In this document: piece after piece, positions 1 to 8,075 of the stretch
How positions within the stretch are numbered: the stretch's first letter is position 1
Layout: each line of letters opens with the position of its first letter
Assembly (NCBI GenBank): GCA_037042915.1
Contig: CM073200.1
Span: 3,406,832-3,470,831, forward strand
Length of the DNA stretch: 64,000 nucleotides
Direction of reading: 5' to 3'
From: Auricularia sp. M13
Taxonomy: Eukaryota; Basidiomycota; Agaricomycetes; Auriculariales; Auriculariaceae
Position numbers and translations under genes: made by a program
The notes under the pieces: generated by a model
Databases searched by the model: none
The model's input: the letters and a program-made list of their open reading frames with translations, nothing else
Told to the model about the DNA's origin: nothing

Positions 1-1019
1 GAGGTAGACGGTGACCGTGACGTCGAGGAGGTCGGAGAAGATGCCGTTCATGAAGCGCTGGAAAGCGGCTGGAGCGTTCGTGAGACCGAAAGGCATGACG
101 AGATACTCGTAGGTGCCGTAGCGCGTTCGAAAGGCAGTCTTCCACCCGTCGCCGGCCGCGATGCGAACGTTGCTGTATCCGACACGAAGATCGAGCTTGG
201 TGAACTTCTTGGCGGTGCGAAGGCGGTCGAGCGTAGACGAGATGAGCGGGAGCGGGTACTTGTCCTTCCGAGTGATCTTGTTGAGCCCACGATAATCGAC
301 GCATAGGCGAAGAGAACCGTCGGCCTTCTTGACGAAGAGAACCGGGGCGCCACCCGGGGACGACGAAGAGCGAATGTGTCCTTTGCTGAGGTTATCCTGA
401 ATGTACTCCCGAAGCGCGAGTTGCTCGGGCTCGGAGAGCGAGTAGATCGGACCGGATGGGAGAGGCTTGCCTTCTTCCATGTCGATCTTGAGATCGTACG
501 GCCGATGTTCAGGGAGTCGATTCGAGGCCTCCTTTGAGAAGGCGTCGAGGAACTCGTGATAACACTCGGGGATGCCTTCGCCGGTTTCCGAGGCCGGGTT
601 GGCAGACGCAGAGCGAGCGGGCACCGATGGATCTCGAATGTAGATGGCCGAGACCATCGAGCCGCGAAGTCGACGAGAGGTGTCGAAGGCTGCGGCGCCG
701 ATGATCTTGATGTCGACACGAGCAGCGGCCGCACGAAGGGCGGTTTCGTCCATCGGCGGTTTGGGAGGCAGAGTACGTGGCGCGGGAGGAGGTGACAACG
801 GAGTCGGAGGATCCGAGTCGAGCGAGAACCCAGGGACGAAACCCGAGGGATCCGAGGGCGAGACACGAGTGGGGAAAGAGATGCGGTGATGGAACCAGTC
901 AATCCTAGGATTGTAGCGGGCCAACCAGCGGTATCCCAACACTGCAGAGCAAGTCGGATCTAGAGTGGTGAGGAGGAAGTTGATGATCATCGAAGTTCCG
1001 CAAGGAAAGCGGACGGGAA
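1..1019 (-). pseudogene. Element B pol: protease C-terminus, linker and reverse transcriptase (partial)
   Basis: The minus-strand frame, open to the left edge, encodes the end of the gypsy aspartic-protease domain, including the typical segment RYNPRIDW near base 910. An acidic/proline linker follows, then the RT palm and fingers. RT landmarks are [28 protein letters not shown], a KLDLR motif holding the first catalytic Asp, and [11 protein letters not shown]. The window ends just before the expected YxDD box. No ATG is expected because this is the interior of a gag-pol product. The upstream part of the frame lies at 5226-5619 on the other side of element A, and removing A with one copy of GCGAC restores the frame exactly. 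It copies element RNA into DNA in the virus-like particle. It is classed as a pseudogene because gag and protease of this copy are damaged. Confidence 0.88.
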
Positions 1020-1024
1020 GCGAC

Positions 1025-1504
1025 TGTTGCGGTCTTCGTCGGGTCCCTCCTCCCCCGCTGTTTCATTTCGCCGTCCCGTGGCCCTCGCACCTCGTCCGGG
1101 CGCCCAAACTCCTTGCGCCCGGCCCTGCGGCCCTTTCGTCGGCGCGTCCAAGCGGTCTCTCCGCTCGGCGAGTACCTCGGTCTCTTCCCAGGAGAAGGGT
1201 AATATGACGGGATGTTTCTGGTTTGGTTGGGCTCTATTTATCCCGGGTTTCCTGTCTCGCCGACGACGCCCCGGCGGTCTCTTTCGGCCTGATCTGTGGC
1301 GCCCGCGTGACAACCGGTCGGTGGCGCAATTGGTCCGCGGGGTCCCTCGGCCTTGCTTCCGTAGTATATATATCTGGGCCGTCGCCCCTCTTGTACCTTA
1401 GGTTTGGTCTGGTCTATCATACCGCTTATCCGCGCCTCCCTCTCCCCACTCATCCCTTCCCCTCGGGCGTCGTCTCGGAGAGTGATATAGCAGTCACCGT
1501 GACA
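1025..1504 (+). repeat. 5' LTR of element A (480 bp)
   Basis: Begins TGTTGCGG, ends GTGACA. U3 carries TATATATAT at 1365-1373. The R region should begin near 1398-1399, judged from the TATA spacing and the PBS complementarity. Confidence 0.93.
1365..1373 (+). promoter_or_regulatory. TATA box of element A LTR
   Basis: TATATATAT, about 30 bases upstream of the inferred RNA start near 1398. The same sequence is present in the 3' LTR. Confidence 0.65.
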
Positions 1505-1506
1505 TA

Positions 1507-1518
1507 AGACCAAACCTA
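1507..1518 (+). other. Self-priming primer-binding site of element A
   Basis: AGACCAAACCTA lies two bases after the 5' LTR. Its exact reverse complement TAGGTTTGGTCT is at 1399-1410, the predicted first bases of the transcript. This implies priming by the folded-back RNA 5' end instead of a tRNA, as in Tf1. Confidence 0.75.
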
Positions 1519-2171
1519 CCCTCCCTCCCGACGCTCGAGATCCCCATACCCCTTACTCACCACCCTTCCAATCCGGGCGAACCGTTCGGTCGGCGTTGCT
1601 CGGTCCAGGAAGGAATCCGACCCCTCGGACCGGCTAGGAGACCCCTCGCGTCGACGAGGACCCGTCGCGACCGCCGCGCCCACTCATCGGCCCACCAGGA
1701 CCCTGCAGGACCCACCCTCCGGACGCCGAGCCTTGCCCACTGGCCTTCTGGTCAGGCACTCAGCCAACGAGGACCCCTCCAGACCCATACGGTCGTCAAA
1801 TCCGAAAGCTCATTCCATCACCGGCTCCTGATCTCTCCCCTTCATCAGAGCCCGGTCATCCGCGGCGAGACCACCCCCCACAAGCCCTACTCGCCGAACG
1901 CGCCCGCTGCGTCCCCACCCCTCGGTCAACCTCTAAACCTCCCACGGCCGACCCCTCTCTCCAGAACCTCACCCTCCGCGCATCCCGAGAGCAAGTTCCC
2001 CCGTGGGGCGCGCGGCGCATTCACATCATCTTCCTCGGATCGTGACCCCCATCATCCCCACGCATCAACGCTTACGACACATACACCATATAATCCGGAT
2101 CGGCCGCCAGACCGACGCCTTTTCCCCTTTTTCCCCGACACGCCCCTTTGTTCGGACCGAACGCTCACAAA
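1519..2171 (+). other. Leader of element A, no gene recognised
   Basis: C/T-rich leader between the PBS and the chromodomain ATG. I see no ORF with coding character in it. It may contain packaging signals. Confidence 0.4.
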
Positions 2172-2963
2172 ATGTCCCAGTACGACGAGACCATAGTTAA
2201 CCCTCAATACATACCGGCGGCAGTCCTGGATCACCGCGTACACCGAGGAGTTCCTCAGTATCTCGTCCAATGGATGGGCTTTCCCCCCGAGGACGCTAGC
2301 TGGCAACTGGCCGCCGACCTGGACGGAACCGGACTCGTGGAGGAGTACCACGCCGAACCACCGGAGCCAAATGAGGACCAAGGCGCCGCACAGGACCTGG
2401 ACCAGGATGCGGACATGGACCTCGGCGAGGACTTTGGCGACGGATCCCAAGAGCTGTTCGGCGAATCACCCATCAGCACCGGCGAGTCACCTCTCGCTGC
2501 CGACGAGTCGCCCGAGCTTGAGGACGCGCGCCCGGCCACACCTCCGCTGGAGCTCATCCCCCTTCGCGCTCGTATCCGGTCGCCGGACCCGGACGACACC
2601 CGGCTCGACATCTCCATGCTCGTGGCCCCTCCCCAACCGTTTTTCTGGATGCTAGACCGCTTCACTCACTACGGCCGCTTCGCTGCCCCGAGACATCTCC
2701 CGCTCGATATCTCGCGTTACTGGGTACTCCCGACCGTCGTGCGCAATGACCGAGGCCGACGGGCTCGCACCGAGCTAGTGGTCTTCTCGTTCCCACCTCG
2801 CCTCGGCCCTCATCTCCTCACGTCGCCTACGACGGAGCGAGCCCTCCAAGTTGTTCGGCTTACGGCGTGCCTTGTCTGGGACGTCCGCGAATATCGTTCC
2901 ACGTACGCCGACGACGCCCTGGTCCTGCGGATCGCGTCCCCCGGCCCGGCCCACCGTCTTTGA
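2172..2963 (+). CDS. Chromodomain protein encoded by element A
   Basis: A 263-residue ORF from the ATG at 2172. Residues about 15-60 form a chromodomain: a conserved-looking core YLVQWMGFPPEDASW with the aromatic residues Y, W and W of the methyl-lysine cage, followed by LVEEYH. This closely resembles the chromodomain at the C-terminus of chromovirus integrases. The next 90 residues are very acidic and rich in Ser/Pro (repeats of GESP/DESP). The C-terminal 110 residues include a PFFWMLDRF segment and a basic RGRRART stretch, with no family I recognise. No integrase catalytic DDE or zinc finger precedes the chromodomain, so it is a stand-alone chromodomain, perhaps captured from a chromoviral pol. 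A role in directing integration to marked chromatin is inference. The ORF lies 670 bases downstream of the LTR, with no clear upstream ORF. Confidence 0.75.
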   Translation: MSQYDETIVNPQYIPAAVLDHRVHRGVPQYLVQWMGFPPEDASWQLAADLDGTGLVEEYHAEPPEPNEDQGAAQDLDQDADMDLGEDFGDGSQELFGESPISTGESPLAADESPELEDARPATPPLELIPLRARIRSPDPDDTRLDISMLVAPPQPFFWMLDRFTHYGRFAAPRHLPLDISRYWVLPTVVRNDRGRRARTELVVFSFPPRLGPHLLTSPTTERALQVVRLTACLVWDVREYRSTYADDALVLRIASPGPAHRL

Positions 2964-3303
2964 ACGCTCCGGACGGTCGCCCCTGCCTTGTACAGCAGCA
3001 CGCTTTGCGAAGCTGAAACCGCCCTTCTTTGTCGATATCTATTGGCGTACAGGTGACGCCACCCGTCGTTCCTTCCCCCTCGGCGACCGTGCCCAAAATC
3101 GGACCCTACCTCGGTCGGACGCTGCTTCGGTCGGATGCTCTCCACAGTCACGGTCCCGGTCGTTTCTCATACCCCGTATTTATGCTCGTCTTTCCGCCTC
3201 TCTATTTACATATTTTACGAGCCTCCACACCACTACCCAAATCGTACCCGGACACGGTCTTACTCCTCCATGGGTTGGCCCGCATCGACCGACTTCTCCC
3301 CTA

Positions 3304-4522
3304 TCACGGACGCATCCCGACCCTCGGACCGTTGGACGCGTGGCAGGAATCCGGACCCGGACCCAGACGCCTCCATCGACGCAAAGCTGGGTGTCGGACG
3401 CACATCCCCGGCACTACCACGCCAAGAAGGGCCAGGTCGGCGCCGAAGTCAGCAAGCACGCCGACAGGACCAGCCGGCGCCTCCGCCTCCACGCCTGCTG
3501 CGCCAGGGGAAGTCGGCGCGTCGGTGGGCGACCTCCCCGCCTCGTCCTCCACCGCTCGGCCGTCATTGGAGTCGGTATCGCGCTCGCTCCCGCCCGGCGA
3601 CACGAGGCGCACCGTCTTATGGGCACGCCGGTCATCGACGAGCTCTTGCGTCCACTTGCGAAGGTCGCGCCTCAACGCCGAGACGGACAGCTGGAACCCC
3701 TGGACGATGCGGTCGCCCAGGACCTCGAGGTCGGCCATGGTGGCTGTCCCCGGCGACCGAAGCCTTCGGCGTGTGCGCGACCGCGCCACGGACGCGCCGA
3801 CGGTGTCCACCACGTCGTCCTGGTCCGGATCGTCCCCGTCGTCGCCGTCCACGTCAGCGTCTTGTCGCGCCCTCTTGCGCGATGTGCCCGACCGGCCGAC
3901 ACTGTGAGAACACCCCACGCGGGTCCGGTGGCAACGAGCACAGGCAGTCGCCGACCCGGACACTTGTCGAAAACACGGCTGGCCGGAGCGCTCGCACTGC
4001 TCACAAGGCTGGACCCGGACGAAGGATGTCAGCGCAGGATACACCCCGGAGCAAGAGGACCTTTGGCCAGGACGTACCGTGTTAAAAGGAGGCCCGACCG
4101 CGTCCTTCTCCTCGTCGCCGGTCCCTCGCGCGCCGACGTCCGAAGGCCGCTTCGACCCAGACGCGACCGCTCCCGATGGGCCCTTGCCCTTCGCGGTCGA
4201 GGAGGTCGTTCCCGTGCGGCGAACCCCTTCCACCTTCGGCACTACGGGGAGCGAGGCTGCTGTCATGCCGAGGAGAGACGCCGCCGTCTCCAGATTGCGG
4301 GTCGCGGCGTTGCGTCGGCGCACCTCGGCGTCAATGGCCTCCAACCGCTGGCCCGCAGACGCAAGCACCGTCCGCGCCTTCTCCTCCTCCCGCGTCCGCG
4401 GCGTAGTGCCCGAAGTTCAGTTGGCGCTGGATGGAGGCATGCAGCGTGAACACCCGCTCCCTGAGGTCCCGAAGTTCGCCGAGAGGCTTCGCAGTCAGTC
4501 CGTCGGCGGCGGTGGGCGTCAT
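3304..4522 (-). CDS. Zn-cluster-like cysteine protein, antisense ORF in element A
   Basis: The main minus-strand frame runs 4368-3304 without an ATG at its head. A different frame starts at an ATG at 4522 and joins it after a one-base shift near 4405, so either a frameshift or a small unrecognised intron is present. The joined region starts with a heptad-rich, Glu/Arg-rich likely coiled coil (LRERVFTLHASI, then QRLEAIDAEVRRR). It continues through a low-complexity linker to a double cysteine motif near residue 150: C-x2-C-x6-C, ten residues, C-x2-C-x6-C. This is the spacing of fungal Zn2Cys6 clusters. An acidic stretch and a second helical segment follow. Its role is unknown; DNA or RNA binding is possible. 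Opposite orientation to the LTR transcript is unusual for an element gene. Confidence 0.55.
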
Positions 4523-4734
4523 AGGATATCGGACGGTGACGGGAAGCGGGGAGACGAAGAGCGAGAAGTACCGTGGTTCGTGTACGGCGACGGCCGAGCC
4601 TTTCGCGGCATCTGACGCTTAGAGTTTGATCCCGCGGCGGATGGAGCTCGGCCCGGCCACGCTATGGTCCGTCTCCCCACGCCCGATCTAACCCGCACCT
4701 CCCTGGCTATTCCCACCTCGGCCACTGGACGGCT

Positions 4735-4743
4735 AGAAGGGGG
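4735..4743 (+). other. Polypurine tract of element A
   Basis: AGAAGGGGG ending three bases before the 3' LTR, the usual place for plus-strand priming. Confidence 0.7.
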
Positions 4744-4746
4744 TTA

Positions 4747-5225
4747 TGTTGCGGTCTTCGTCGGGTCCCTCCTCCCCCACTGTTTCATTTCGCCGTCCCG
4801 TGGCCCTCGCACCTCGTCCGGGCGCCCAAACTCCTTGCGCCCGGCCCTGCGGCCCTTTCGTCAGCGCGTCCAAGCGGTCTCTCCGCTCGGCGAGTACCTC
4901 GGTCTCTTCCCAGGAGAAGGGTAATATGACGGGATGTTTCTGGTTTGGTTGGGCTCTATTTATCCCGGGTTTCCTGTCTCGCCGACGACGCCCGGCGGTC
5001 TCTTTCGGCCTGATCTGTGGCGCCCGCGTGACAACCGGTCGGTGGCGCAATTGGTCCGCGGGGTCCCTCGGCCTTGCTTCCGTAGTATATATATCTGGGC
5101 CGTCGCCCCTCTTGTACCTTAGGTTTGGTCTGGTCTATCATACCGCTTATCCGCGCCTCCCTCTCCCCACTCATCCCTTCCCCTCGGGCGTCGTCTCGGA
5201 GAGTGATATAGCAGTCACCGTGACA
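4747..5225 (+). repeat. 3' LTR of element A (479 bp)
   Basis: Near-identical to 1025-1504, with one C missing in the run near 4990 and two substitutions. It is preceded by the polypurine tract at 4735-4743. Confidence 0.93.
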
Positions 5226-5619
5226 GCGACACGTATTTGGAGATAACACCGCGGTAGGAGCCGTAGAAGAGCCGAAGGCGGAGCGGTTGATCGAGAGACT
5301 TTTGAGGGAGTCGAAGACTCTCGGCGAACTGAGTATCGAGGAACTGATCTTCGGAGCCGGAGTTGACGAGTGTGCGAAAGGATGGGACAGCGTCGGAGGA
5401 GAGGACAACGATGAGAGCATCTTGATCGATGAGCGCGGTAGTGTTCAACCGAGTGTAAGGCATCTTGGGCTTGACGCAGTTGGCCCTAGATGCCCGTGGG
5501 GAACTGCCCGTTAGTTTTCGCTTCCGCCGGGGCAGAAGCGGCGGCGCCCGAGGGAGCGGGAGCCGGCGTCGAGGGAGTCGCGACCCTTCGACTCGCGATT
5601 GTGAGCGGCCTTGCGGCAC
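5226..5619 (-). pseudogene. Element B pol start: aspartic protease region
   Basis: This minus-strand frame overlaps the end of gag and lies in the -1 frame relative to it, as expected for a gag-pol frameshift. Past a basic stretch it reads into a retropepsin-like domain. The active-site segment reads LVNSGS where the family has D-S/T-G, so the catalytic Asp is Asn (codon near 5362, consistent with one G-to-A change). The frame ends artificially at 5225, where element A starts, and resumes at 1019. Retropepsins of this kind release gag and pol proteins. With the nucleophile-activating Asp missing, this copy should not self-process. The identification rests on position between the zinc knuckle and RT and on the motif, not on a database search. 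Confidence 0.75.
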
Positions 5620-5811
5620 TCGGACGCGGTGTGGCCGGCATGGCCACAGTAGAGGCAGAGGTTGTTATCGAGGCGACGGCGTCGTTCGGCGTCGTTGAGC
5701 TTGCCGTTCGAGTTGAGGTTCTTCGCGACCTCGTCCTTCGACTTGGTCGTGGTCTTCGAAGACGAGCGGGCTGAGGTCGAGGACTGACCCCTCGAGTTCG
5801 AGTGGTTGTTC

Positions 5812-5813
5812 GA

Positions 5814-5853
<40 letters not shown>
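5812..5853. repeat. 9-bp tandem repeat in element B gag
   Basis: About four units of TTGCCGTTG in tandem. On the minus strand they encode an Asn-Gly-Asn repeat just before the zinc knuckle. Confidence 0.8.
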
Positions 5854-6639
5854 GAGCGCGCGTTGGACTTGGTGTTCGATCGGGAGCCCGATTGAGGCGT
5901 CGCGGTCGAGGTGGTCTTCTGCGCTTTTCAGGGTTCGTTCGCGTGCTCGAGAGCTTGCTCGTCCTTATCGATCCAGTAGTTGGCGTCGATGCTAAGAGCG
6001 AGCGCAGCGAGTGGCGTCAGAGAAGCCGGGCGTTGAGCTACCTGAGCAGCAAAGACAGATTTGATGCGGCGAGGGAGTCCGCGATAGAACTGCGAGGCGA
6101 GTGCAGCGTCGTCCCAGCCGAGCAGTTTGGCGTATTCGTCGAACTGGAGCTTGTAGCGGGCGACCTTGCCGTTGTCGGCCATTTGCAGTCGTCGAATCTT
6201 GACTTCGGCGCGTTCGCGTTCGTTCGTGACGCTGAAGGTGATCGTGAGTTCGGTCTTGAATTCGTTCCAATCTTCGAGGAACTCGTAGCCGGGAGGCGGA
6301 TTCGGGACGAGAGGAACGTAGCCGCCCCACCATTCCTTCGCCCAACCCGAGAGATAGGTCGCGGTGAAGAGAATCTTCTCGCAGGACGTCTGGTACTTCC
6401 GAGGGTTGGCGAGGAAGTAGGTTTCGCAGTCGATGAGGAATCCGCGAAGTTTGTTGGCGTTTTCGCCGTCGAATTTGTCGGGTTTGGCAGCGTCGATGCG
6501 AGAGCCGCTGTTGCGGTCGATGAAGTAGACACAAGGGACGTTGTCGTGTTGATCGTGGAATTGTCGTTCGCGATCGACGTCCGAGTCGTAGCCGTCTGAC
6601 GGGGGGGTCAAAGGGAGGTCCCGGGGGACCAGGAGGACC

Positions 6640-6835
6640 GTTACCGCCACCACCGCCCCCACCGCCGCCACCTCCGGGAGGAGGGTTCGGAGGGTGCGAG
6701 CCGTGCGAGTGGTGCGAGTGGTGCGACGAGGGCGAGGGAGCACCTCGATGACCACCACCGCCACCGCCGCCTCCGCCGCCTCCGCCTCCACCGCCGCCAC
6801 CTCCTCCGCCTCCTCCGCCACCTCCGCCGCCACGC
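6640..6835. repeat. CCN/GGN trinucleotide tract encoding poly-Gly in gag
   Basis: Two runs of CCN triplets (about 6645-6680 and 6749-6834) encode glycine runs on the minus strand, separated by a His/Ser-rich spacer. Together with the nearby G7 run this is a likely slippage hotspot. Confidence 0.8.
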
Positions 6836-7339
6836 CGAGGCGTGTTAGGGGTGCCGGATGGGAAGAAGCCGCGGAACAACGAGGAGTGTTGCGAAAGACG
6901 AGGAGTCGAGCAAGAGCCGGTGTACGGGACGAGCGCGAGAGGGTGTCGAGAGCCGAGCGAGTGAGTCGAGGGATGCGAAGGCGATCGCGTCGTGTGACTT
7001 GAGGGAGGGTAGGAACCGCTCGGGTCCGCGCGTAGTGTGGACTGGGCCGGCGAGAAACGCGAGGTGTGAAGCGAGCCGGAGAGAGTATGTTGCGAGAGGA
7101 TTTCGTCATCATCGTTCGGCGGTTGCGAGTGCCGAGATGATCCGAAGCGGCTAGTGCCCGACATCGAGACTGATGGCGAAGGCGTAGCCAGCTGAGGAGG
7201 TTGTTGGTCGCGAAGACGAGCCTGACGACGAGCTTCGCGAAGGATAGCGTCGGGGGAGTCGAGTTGAGGATGAGGTTCTTCCTGGTTTCTTCTGAGATTC
7301 TGTCGAGTCCCAAAGGCCATACAACTCGAGCTCCGCTCG

Positions 7340-7350
7340 AGTTACGAAAT
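7340..7350 (-). other. Self-priming primer-binding site of element B
   Basis: On the minus strand ATTTCGTAACT lies two bases after the LTR end. Its exact reverse complement AGTTACGAAAT is at 7605-7595 in the LTR, at the predicted start of the RNA. No TGG tRNA-type PBS is present at the LTR edge. This is the arrangement known from Tf1 of fission yeast, where the RNA 5' end folds back to prime minus-strand DNA. Confidence 0.7.
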
Positions 7351-7352
7351 AC

Positions 7353-8075
7353 TGTTAAGCCTGCTGTGCCTTGGGGGTTTGGTTGCAAGGATAGTCGAAC
7401 GTCCGGGCGCAGAGAACACTCGAACGAACAACTAGAGCCTTCGGTGCGTTATTGAGCACACCGGCTACGTCGAGTAGCACGACCGAAGGGACCATGAGCA
7501 ACAGAGGACTCAGACAAGTAAGTCGGGCGAGGGAAGAACCCAGAGGCGAAGTCGAGAGAGAGAGATAGAGTGTGCGAGGGGCACAACTATGTCGATTTCG
7601 TAACTGGGGAGCTAGATACAAAGTCGAGGGTCTTTTATACCTGGGGAGGTGATCCGATGTAATCGGAGTGTATCCTAGAGACGAAGGAGAGGGGCCTCAG
7701 ATCAATAGAGATCTTCGTCATCGGCCGATAGGATGAGTAAGAGCGAGTGGGTAAGGTATCGGGGGATCGGACGAATGACGAGAGGCGAATGACTAAGACG
7801 AGTGGAGCGAACCAGATATGAACACTATCGATACAGTAGGGACAAGGCGAGTTAGGTGGATGTATGCGAGTAAGGAGAGAAGCTAGAGATGAGAGGGAGA
7901 GGTCTAGAGGTAGAGGACGATGAGGAGAACATATCCCGAGCATATGAACACGAGGGGAGATAAGCCGGGTATTCGGGAGCTTGACCGAGTTGACCGAGTT
8001 GGCCGAGTGACGTAGAATGACGCCGAGTGATGCCGAGAGCACGTGGGGTCCGCGGACCGGGGCACGGGCGTAACA
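7353..8075 (-). repeat. 5' LTR of element B (723 bp)
   Basis: The inner edge is fixed by the PBS two bases beyond it. The outer edge is placed where the sequence changes from LTR to the Tc1-type transposase frame, giving 5-base inverted ends TGTTA/TAACA. A TATAAAAG box on the minus strand (7639-7632) should drive transcription from about 7605. The partner LTR is left of the window, so the boundary cannot be checked by LTR comparison here. Confidence 0.7.
7632..7639 (-). promoter_or_regulatory. TATA box of element B LTR
   Basis: TATAAAAG on the minus strand, about 34 bases upstream of 7605. That is where the self-priming complementarity predicts the transcript 5' end. Confidence 0.65.

What the first reader, a model, noticed from the sequence alone, without database searches (positions are those of the whole stretch)
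1025..5225. LTR retrotransposon with a stand-alone chromodomain ORF and an opposed Zn-cluster ORF, no gag-pol
The LTRs are near-identical, the target duplication GCGAC is intact, and the PBS and polypurine tract are present, so it moved recently. Yet it encodes no gag, RT or integrase core. Instead it carries a chromodomain like that of chromovirus integrases, plus an antisense ORF with a C6 cysteine pattern. A parasite element that keeps only a chromatin-targeting module, possibly to bias where borrowed integrase inserts, would be a new class of non-autonomous retroelement.
Basis: partly seen in the sequence, partly recalled or inferred. Interest (0 to 1): 0.88.

Follow-up and report, generated by a model that had tools for sequence, protein, structure and literature searches.

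The report
Retrotransposon carrying only two accessory genes
A (probably fungal) jumping gene that has lost all of its own copying machinery has nevertheless kept two genes under selection, a chromatin-reading protein and a DNA-binding-like protein on the opposite strand, which suggests that parasitic elements can live on borrowed enzymes while keeping their own tools for dealing with the host's chromatin.

Summary
Window 1025-5225 is an LTR retrotransposon (TSD GCGAC) without recognisable gag-pol. The genome holds 20 uninterrupted full-length copies, 4 interrupted by later insertions and 1 truncated. The PBS is a self-priming site: 12 nt pair perfectly with the presumed RNA 5' end, and the pairing co-varies across related families. 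ORF1 (263 aa) is a stand-alone chromodomain protein with an intact aromatic cage. ORF2 is an antisense frame, 420 aa where whole, with a six-cysteine cluster; it is frameshifted in this copy. Both evolved under purifying selection (dN/dS 0.17-0.24 and 0.16-0.40). [quoted passage not shown] Four sister families share LTR ends, PBS and PPT; 75 of 83 PBS sites have a PPT 2.2-4.0 kb downstream, and I found no gag-pol element with this signature. That the chromodomain steers a borrowed integrase is plausible but untested. Verdict: a new variant of non-autonomous LTR element; its single features have precedents, and ten literature searches showed none for the combination.

The parts
1020..1024 (.). 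target-site duplication GCGAC, left
1025..1504 (+). 5' LTR (480 bp), TGTTGCGG...CCGTGACA
1365..1373 (+). TATA-like box TATATATAT, starting 34 nt upstream of the self-priming sequence (same distance in family B; none found by the same pattern in C and E)
   Evidence: promoter function inferred
1399..1410 (+). TAGGTTTGGTCT, presumed RNA 5' end / self-primer, perfectly complementary to 1507-1518
1505..1518 (+). primer-binding site TAAGACCAAACCTA (self-priming type)
1519..2171 (+). leader, no known coding function; the stretch PBS to ORF1 is less diverged (35/664) than ORF1 (91/789) between this copy and L034
   Evidence: packaging role inferred
2172..2963 (+). ORF1, 263-aa stand-alone chromodomain protein, dN/dS 0.17-0.24
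2208..2351 (+). chromodomain (ORF1 residues 13-60), cage residues Y13, W34, F37
2622..2960 (+). ORF1 C-terminal region, no known domain, dN/dS 0.17-0.39
3260..4522 (-). ORF2 region; one 420-aa frame in copy L014, in this copy split by frameshifts into 4331-4522 and 3304-4368
3910..4005 (-). six-cysteine cluster of ORF2 (C-x2-C-x6-C-x10-C-x2-C-x6-C)
4735..4743 (+). polypurine tract AGAAGGGGG, followed by TTA and the 3' LTR
4747..5225 (+). 3' LTR (479 bp)
5226..5230 (.). target-site duplication GCGAC, right

Best explanation
SHOWN: this is one copy of a recently mobile LTR retrotransposon family without recognisable gag-pol ('family A') whose PBS is complementary to its own presumed RNA 5' end, and in which two protein genes have been kept under purifying selection: a sense chromodomain protein and an antisense C6-cluster protein. 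The antisense gene is homologous to one that a gag-pol-bearing Ty3/gypsy family of the same genome ('G') carries, antisense, between pol and 3' LTR. INFERRED: A descends from an element with such a layout by loss of gag to integrase core, and is copied and integrated in trans by Gag-Pol of another, unidentified element. INFERRED (most likely mechanism, about even odds against the alternatives): the two proteins act in the nucleus on the element's own chromatin. ORF1 reads methylated histone H3 (HP1-type cage) and tethers the borrowed integration complex or the element to silent chromatin; ORF2 binds DNA and regulates transcription of the element.
For: Copies: 20 uninterrupted full-length, 4 interrupted, 1 truncated; exact 5-bp TSD in 22 of 24 examined (17 of 19, 5 of 5); LTR pairs of 19 copies differ by 0-10 mismatches of about 480 bases. 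Self-priming: 12-bp complement in 20 of 21 copies (10 in the other), and co-varying R/PBS pairs in families A/B, C/E and F. Selection: ORF1 dN/dS 0.17-0.24 in 8 pairs, chromodomain 0.09-0.13; ORF2 0.16-0.40 in 9 pairs; shifted frames 0.79-2.93, mirror frames excepted; Fisher P 3e-15 and 2e-14. Cage residues kept in 25 of 25 rows with sequence; the six cysteines in 27 of 27 (one of them 26 of 26). L034 differs from the window copy at 59 of 480 5'-LTR bases but its own LTRs at 5 of 483, so most of the divergence arose before it inserted. ORF2 homologue in G: tblastn 4.6e-5 (L054) and 2.0e-4 (L053), both antisense to pol.
Against: No autonomous partner found. No expression, binding or insertion-bias data. 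Only 3 copies keep ORF2 whole; 12 of 25 copies have a frameshift or stop in ORF1. The sense strand over ORF2 is as open as the antisense in many copies, its mirror frame has dN/dS 0.30-0.41, and stop codons do not favour the antisense frame (0-3 per pair in both). ORF2 against family B is weak (E 0.003, 0.22). In the G copy read, Pfam scored no chromodomain. G's LTR ends (...TTAACA) differ from A's, so G is not the likely helper. ORF1's C-terminal part matches no Pfam family.
Confidence: 0.6

Rival explanations
1. ORF1 is an anti-silencing factor: an HP1-like decoy that competes for methylated H3K9 on the element's own chromatin so that its LTR stays transcribed; it has nothing to do with integration.
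For: ORF1 has an HP1-type cage but no integrase was found in the element; a second nuclear-regulator-like gene is kept beside it.
Against: No shadow domain or other HP1 partner domain was recognised; no chromatin or expression data.
Confidence: 0.3
2. Host genes captured by a non-autonomous element: ORF1 and ORF2 are transduced cellular genes that hitch-hike.
For: ORF1's chromodomain resembles HP1/CBX1.
Against: Neither ORF has a close relative in the genome outside retroelements, as far as a six-frame search without introns shows; ORF2's homologue lies in a retrotransposon; selection persists between subfamilies about 12% apart.
Confidence: 0.08
3. The ORFs are only decaying remnants of an autonomous chromovirus; the element needs neither.
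For: About half of the ORF1 copies and most ORF2 copies are broken; private mutations are spread over all three codon positions, and in ORF2 the shared ones are only mildly biased to position 3 (16 of 35).
Against: Between subfamilies, substitutions are strongly synonymous in exactly these frames, and L034's LTRs show that its lineage was recently active. Breakage is as expected after insertion.
Confidence: 0.06

Closest known systems
Tf1/sushi-type self-primed LTR retrotransposons (Levin 1995, seen only as a reference in PMC2864245; details recalled)
   Same: PBS complementary to the presumed RNA 5' end inside the LTR, about a TATA-to-start distance downstream of a TATA-like box in A and B
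   Different: Tf1/sushi elements encode gag-pol with integrase (recalled); this one encodes neither
Antisense additional ORFs between pol and 3' LTR (Grande, RIRE2, Retand, PvRetro13, Boty; PMC7264820 parts 1-2 of 3 read; PMC11963269 passages)
   Same: Antisense gene next to the 3' LTR, conserved across copies, suggested to be nuclear or DNA-binding
   Different: Those elements are described with gag-pol (some Retand clusters are non-autonomous); here the antisense gene sits beside a chromodomain gene in an element without gag-pol, and it bears a C6 cluster, not TRP28 or SMC
SM1-Galahad of Selaginella (PMC3350952, passages seen)
   Same: A group-I chromodomain in a separate small ORF
   Different: SM1-Galahad has gag-pol; its chromodomain ORF is 113 aa as printed
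TelKA2n of bdelloid rotifers (PMC5408684, passage seen)
   Different: The ORF is env-like; no chromodomain was found in those rotifer lineages
TRIM, LARD and TR-GAG derivatives (PMC5818461, passages seen)
   Same: Non-autonomous LTR elements thought to use the machinery of complete elements
   Different: TRIM/LARD lack coding regions and TR-GAG lacks pol; [quoted passage not shown]

Membership tests
Non-autonomous LTR retrotransposon | paired LTRs, 5-bp TSD, PBS, PPT | tested here: met
   exact TSD in 22 of 24 copies
Non-autonomous LTR retrotransposon | no gag-pol | tested here: met
Non-autonomous LTR retrotransposon | multiple dispersed recent copies | tested here: met
Non-autonomous LTR retrotransposon | mobilised in trans by a known autonomous partner | tested here: inconclusive
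   no gag-pol element with the LTR-end/PBS/PPT signature found; other partners not excluded
Tf1/sushi-type self-priming element | PBS complementary to the element's own RNA 5' end | tested here: met
   12-bp match, three co-varying variants; the RNA start itself is inferred from the TATA distance in A and B
Tf1/sushi-type self-priming element | RT/integrase phylogeny in that clade | not testable with these tools
   the element has no RT
Chromovirus | chromodomain at the C-terminus of a gag-pol integrase | tested here: not met
   the chromodomain is near the N-terminus of a separate 263-aa ORF
LARD / TRIM | non-coding interior | tested here: not met
   two ORFs under purifying selection
TR-GAG | keeps gag only | tested here: not met
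   no gag recognised
Antisense additional ORF (aORF-3R) elements | conserved antisense ORF adjoining the 3' LTR | tested here: met
   strand argued
Antisense additional ORF (aORF-3R) elements | antisense ORF follows pol | tested here: not met
   no pol here; met in the homologous G elements
Fungal Zn(2)-Cys(6) cluster protein (PF00172) | Pfam match above cut-off | tested here: not met
   ORF2 E 2.6, 8.7 bits against cut-off 21; family B antisense ORF 21.1 bits, just above
Group I chromodomain | three aromatic cage residues (Y24, W45, Y48 in HP1) | tested here: met
   Y13, W34, F37 at the same spacing, 25 of 25 rows with sequence; definition from PMC3350952 passages; F at the third place as in CBX1

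The most novel reading that the evidence does not exclude
A satellite retrotransposon lifestyle: a clan of at least five self-primed LTR families (75 short PBS-PPT pairs counted) lives in this genome without any gag-pol member that I could find, and family A supplies, with cis preference, its own chromatin reader and its own DNA-binding regulator, so that it controls where or whether it is expressed and inserted while borrowing every enzyme from an unrelated helper.
Probability: 0.25. Interest if true: 0.85.

Novelty: new variant of a known kind. Interest (0 to 1): 0.62.

Why it matters
Proteins of a non-autonomous element that act in trans should decay, because broken copies profit equally. 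Two genes with dN/dS of about 0.2 in an element without gag-pol therefore imply cis preference or a direct benefit to the encoding copy, and make it testable what a chromodomain and an antisense accessory protein do for a retrotransposon when no integrase is attached. That separates targeting from anti-silencing, which are confounded when the chromodomain is part of the integrase.

Tried and rejected
AlphaFold of ORF1 from a single sequence gave mean pLDDT 38.8; not used, no fold search made. Autonomous partner: searched by PBS, PPT-LTR junction, a PPT variant pattern that found nothing and an LTR-end/PBS variant pattern. One search gave 5 sites; four lie at 10.25-kb spacing and the first of these (L047) shows no LTR pair within the piece read; the fifth was not examined. 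Five pieces upstream of long chromodomain-bearing frames showed no convincing self-priming pair, but I cannot tell whether these pieces contain the LTRs. The element nested in another family-A copy (L030/L031) has LTR ends TGTAAGG...GTTACA and no self-priming match. G (L053) shares ORF2 but not LTR ends. Insertion bias: flanks of 200-1500 bp were compared only with the sequence in hand; 7 of 21 copies have other retroelement sequence in a flank; no baseline, so no claim. The sense mirror frame over ORF2 was considered as the coding frame: dN/dS 0.32, 0.30, 0.40, 0.41 against 0.22, 0.21, 0.28, 0.40 antisense in the same four pairs; more and less conservative changes than antisense in four of four pairs, and no homologue (one 15-residue match at E 0.90). 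Stop codons do not help: one search counts 2, 1, 3, 0 in the antisense frame and 2, 0, 1, 1 in the mirror frame. I prefer antisense mainly for the homology to G. tblastx between A and L053-L055 gave scattered short matches; not used.
Full report
WHAT IS THERE. Window 1025-5225 is a complete LTR retrotransposon: LTRs 1025-1504 and 4747-5225 differ by 2 mismatches and 1 gap, the 5-bp target duplication GCGAC is intact, the PBS lies at 1505-1518 and the PPT at 4735-4743. It is inserted in a copy, on the minus strand, of a gag-pol-bearing Ty3/gypsy family that I call G (six blocks of L053 match the window between 2 and 1024 and between 5225 and 8075 at 87-97% identity).

COPIES. The genome (G000, 52.1 Mb in 14 contigs; GC of the window 58.4%) is presumably a fungus; this rests on one weak hydrophobin match with a stop inside and on general character, and was not tested further. 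It gave 42 matches, with 38 of 170 candidates scored. By my count of that table, 20 are uninterrupted and full length, 4 are full length but interrupted by later insertions (C12:997126-1013038, C1:2153895-2158961, C2:1821489-1826430, C7:2288052-2294114), 1 is truncated in its 3' LTR, and the rest are fragments or LTR pieces. In the 19 two-LTR copies the LTR pairs differ by 0 to 10 mismatches and 0 to 4 gap columns of about 480 (mean 0.6% mismatches), and 17 of 19 have exact 5-bp duplications; 5 of 5 further copies do too. So the family has moved many times and recently. It is not a single chimeric event.

SELF-PRIMING. The 12 nt AGACCAAACCTA of the PBS are the exact complement of TAGGTTTGGTCT at 1399-1410, which begins 34 nt after the start of a TATA-like box; the longest match is 12 in 20 of 21 copies and 10 in L015. 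Of 2000 shuffles of the LTR that keep only base composition, 1 reached this length. The pairing co-varies: family B has AGACCAAACCT (11), families C and E AGATCCAACCTA, family F AGAACCAACCTA, each with its own matching R sequence. B has the TATA-like box at the same 34 nt; the pattern found none in C and E, and F's LTR was mostly outside the piece read. Folding pairs R with the PBS in all four sequences folded (A, B, E and F; z-scores -3.1, -3.4, -2.1, -2.9). This is what Tf1-type self-priming looks like (recalled; Levin 1995 was seen only in the reference list of PMC2864245). The RNA start itself is inferred.

A CLAN WITHOUT GAG-POL. PBS-like sites at 0, 1 and 2 mismatches number 25, 33 and 25 (one of the last is the A copy L015); PPT-LTR junctions were listed. 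Of these 83 PBS sites, 75 have a PPT junction on the same strand 2.2-4.0 kb downstream. Of the other eight, three have none within 16 kb and five have longer distances: three are A copies with nested insertions, one (C8:3397575) is a truncated A fragment, and one (C4:1490375) encloses another B element by its coordinates. I found no gag-pol element with this signature; the 3-mismatch class was listed only in part, so a more diverged partner may have been missed. tblastn of G's gag, RT and RH-integrase pieces found nothing in A, B or the pieces of C, E and F. Family B (L043) has LTRs of about 855 bp with 1 mismatch and 2 gap columns, TSD GCTTG, the same LTR ends, and an antisense C6-cluster ORF of 204 aa (PF00172 at 21.1 bits against a cut-off of 21). 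A genome search with it gave 65 rows, 54 of them at E 0.001 or better; 15 rows cover at least 199 of 204 residues without a stop, at 80-100% identity, while others are broken or carry stops. Families C (L045), E (L044) and F (L046) were read in one incomplete copy each; their ORFs were listed but not run against a domain library, so 'non-coding' is not shown for them.

ORF1. PF00385 chromodomain at residues 13-60 (E 1.4e-9); best PDB relative is HP1/CBX1 (E 8.3e-7). The cage residues correspond to Y13, W34 and F37 and are unchanged in 25 of 25 rows with sequence there, 5 rows being gaps. The linker is acidic; the C-terminal 113 residues match no Pfam family. ORF1 is whole in 13 of 25 copies counted (window plus 24); 3 more (L016, L025, L027) differ by a single 1-bp deletion within the last eight codons, and 9 are broken otherwise. 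Outside the family the best matches in the genome are chromodomains near integrase genes at E about 0.1; a pairwise tblastn against one of them (L055) gives 1e-5 with composition correction off. The origin of the domain is therefore open.

ORF2. In this copy the antisense frame is broken; in L014, L017 and L021 it is one frame of 420 aa. In L014 the order along the protein is a charged N-terminal part, the C6 cluster, a basic stretch (SRKRAR) and an acidic stretch (NLS-like by eye only). All six cysteines are kept in 27 of 27 rows with sequence, one of them in 26 of 26. The sense strand of the same region is also open over as many as 430 codons in several copies, and stop codons do not separate the two strands, so openness proves nothing. 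The antisense frame has the lower dN/dS in four of four pairs compared, the fewest amino-acid changes and the most conservative ones in four of four. It alone has a homologue: the G elements L053 and L054 carry, antisense to pol and beyond the integrase, CEACAKRGGQC...CTACHQTRGKC (in L053 one stop falls inside the cluster); tblastn 2.0e-4 and 4.6e-5, genome-wide E 0.0016 and 0.0028. The match to family B's ORF is confined to the cluster and weak (E 0.003, 0.22). The order C6 gene (-), 3' LTR is thus shared by A and G. That the sense gene before it is in both cases the end of an integrase with chromodomain is NOT shown: G's reading contains H2C2, rve and a Tf2-1-like SH3 domain, but Pfam scored no chromodomain in that copy.

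SELECTION. Nei-Gojobori counts were made on codons aligned to the window copy. ORF1: dN/dS 0.17-0.24 in 8 pairs, chromodomain 0.09-0.13, C-terminal domain 0.17-0.39. ORF2 (321 codons): 0.16-0.40 in 9 pairs, with 0-3 stop codons per pair. Control frames (2 pairs over ORF1, 4 over ORF2): 0.79-2.93, except the mirror frame on the other strand (0.19 and 0.27 over ORF1 with 9 and 7 stop codons; 0.30-0.41 over ORF2 with 2-3), which shares third positions. Fisher tests on sites: P 3e-15 (ORF1) and 2e-14 (ORF2), window against L034. L034 and the window copy differ at 59 of 480 5'-LTR bases, but L034's own LTRs differ at only 5 of 483, so most of the divergence was gathered before L034 inserted. Among the 23 young copies, private changes fall on codon positions 1/2/3 as 12/21/25 in ORF1 and 24/15/31 in ORF2; shared ones as 12/4/18 and 12/7/16 (no test made; the bias is clear for shared changes in ORF1 and mild in ORF2). 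I read this as decay after insertion on top of selection in the source lineage. Of the indels counted against the window copy in 20 copies, 18 of 19 in ORF1 and 76 of 76 in ORF2 break the frame; many of the ORF2 ones are the window copy's own frameshifts counted in each comparison, and assembly errors in homopolymers could add some.

HOW IT MOST LIKELY WORKS. Copying and integration must come from another element (inference from the absence of gag-pol in a mobile family). The helper is unknown; it must accept LTR ends TGTTGCGG/CCGTGACA. I commit to a nuclear role of both proteins: ORF1 as a reader of methylated H3 that tethers the borrowed complex or the element to silent chromatin, ORF2 as a DNA-binding regulator. 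Anti-silencing by ORF1 is nearly as likely, and the present data do not separate them. MAGGY's chromodomain is reported to bind H3K9me2/3 and to target integration (passages in PMC3350952).

WHAT IS KNOWN. Antisense extra ORFs near the 3' LTR (PMC7264820, parts 1-2 of 3 read; PMC11963269, passages), a separate chromodomain ORF in SM1-Galahad, which keeps gag-pol (PMC3350952, passages), and a non-autonomous family with an env-like ORF (PMC5408684, passage) are on record. Passages of PMC2864245, PMC5818461, PMC9674265 and PMC12477816 were also seen; the other papers listed were seen as search listings only. I saw no report of a gag-pol-less element with its own chromodomain gene in these; the library lacks most subscription journals, so this is weak evidence of absence.

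VERDICT.

Noticed in passing
window 2-1024 and 5225-8075 (-): The element sits inside a copy of a gag-pol-bearing Ty3/gypsy family (G, L053); a stretch matching G's 3' LTR region lies at 7344-8075. Another family-A copy (L025) is inserted just downstream of the pol frame of another G copy.
   Followed up: partly
L043:4664-8985 and the 1-mismatch sites: Family B, 33 PBS sites: shares LTR ends, PBS and PPT with family A and carries an antisense C6-cluster ORF; on C3:2503192-2513583 and C11:2670051-2676972 its PBS sites recur about every 3.46 kb, as in tandem LTR-interior arrays.
   Followed up: partly
L039 (G000:C3:3668418-3678417): An LTR of family A without its interior lies in four of seven units of a 1.18/1.38-kb tandem repeat, as if a solo LTR had been captured and amplified with it.
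   Followed up: no
L030/L031 (G000:C12:997126-1013038): A family-A copy interrupted by an 11.7-kb insertion whose ends are 322-bp repeats identical to each other, with a long chromodomain-bearing frame inside by coordinates.
   Followed up: partly
L032:1266-2124: Insertion of 859 bp made largely of two 376-bp inverted arms (fold-back type) near position 1060 of a family-A copy, close to where L030/L031 is interrupted (about 1050).
   Followed up: no
L033:2016-2745: 730-bp insertion with perfect 29-bp terminal inverted repeats, MITE-like.
   Followed up: no
L047 (G000:C7:3378700-3388690): A motif recurs four times at 10.25-kb spacing on C7; the contents of the unit were not identified.
   Followed up: no
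L044-L046: Families C, E and F show a second complementarity, GGGTACTCAG downstream of the PBS with CTGAGTACCC in R, as if the self-priming structure had a second helix.
   Followed up: no
window 1505-2171: The leader is less diverged between this copy and L034 than ORF1 or the 5' LTR (35/664 against 91/789 and 59/480), although it has no known coding function; perhaps a packaging signal.
   Followed up: no
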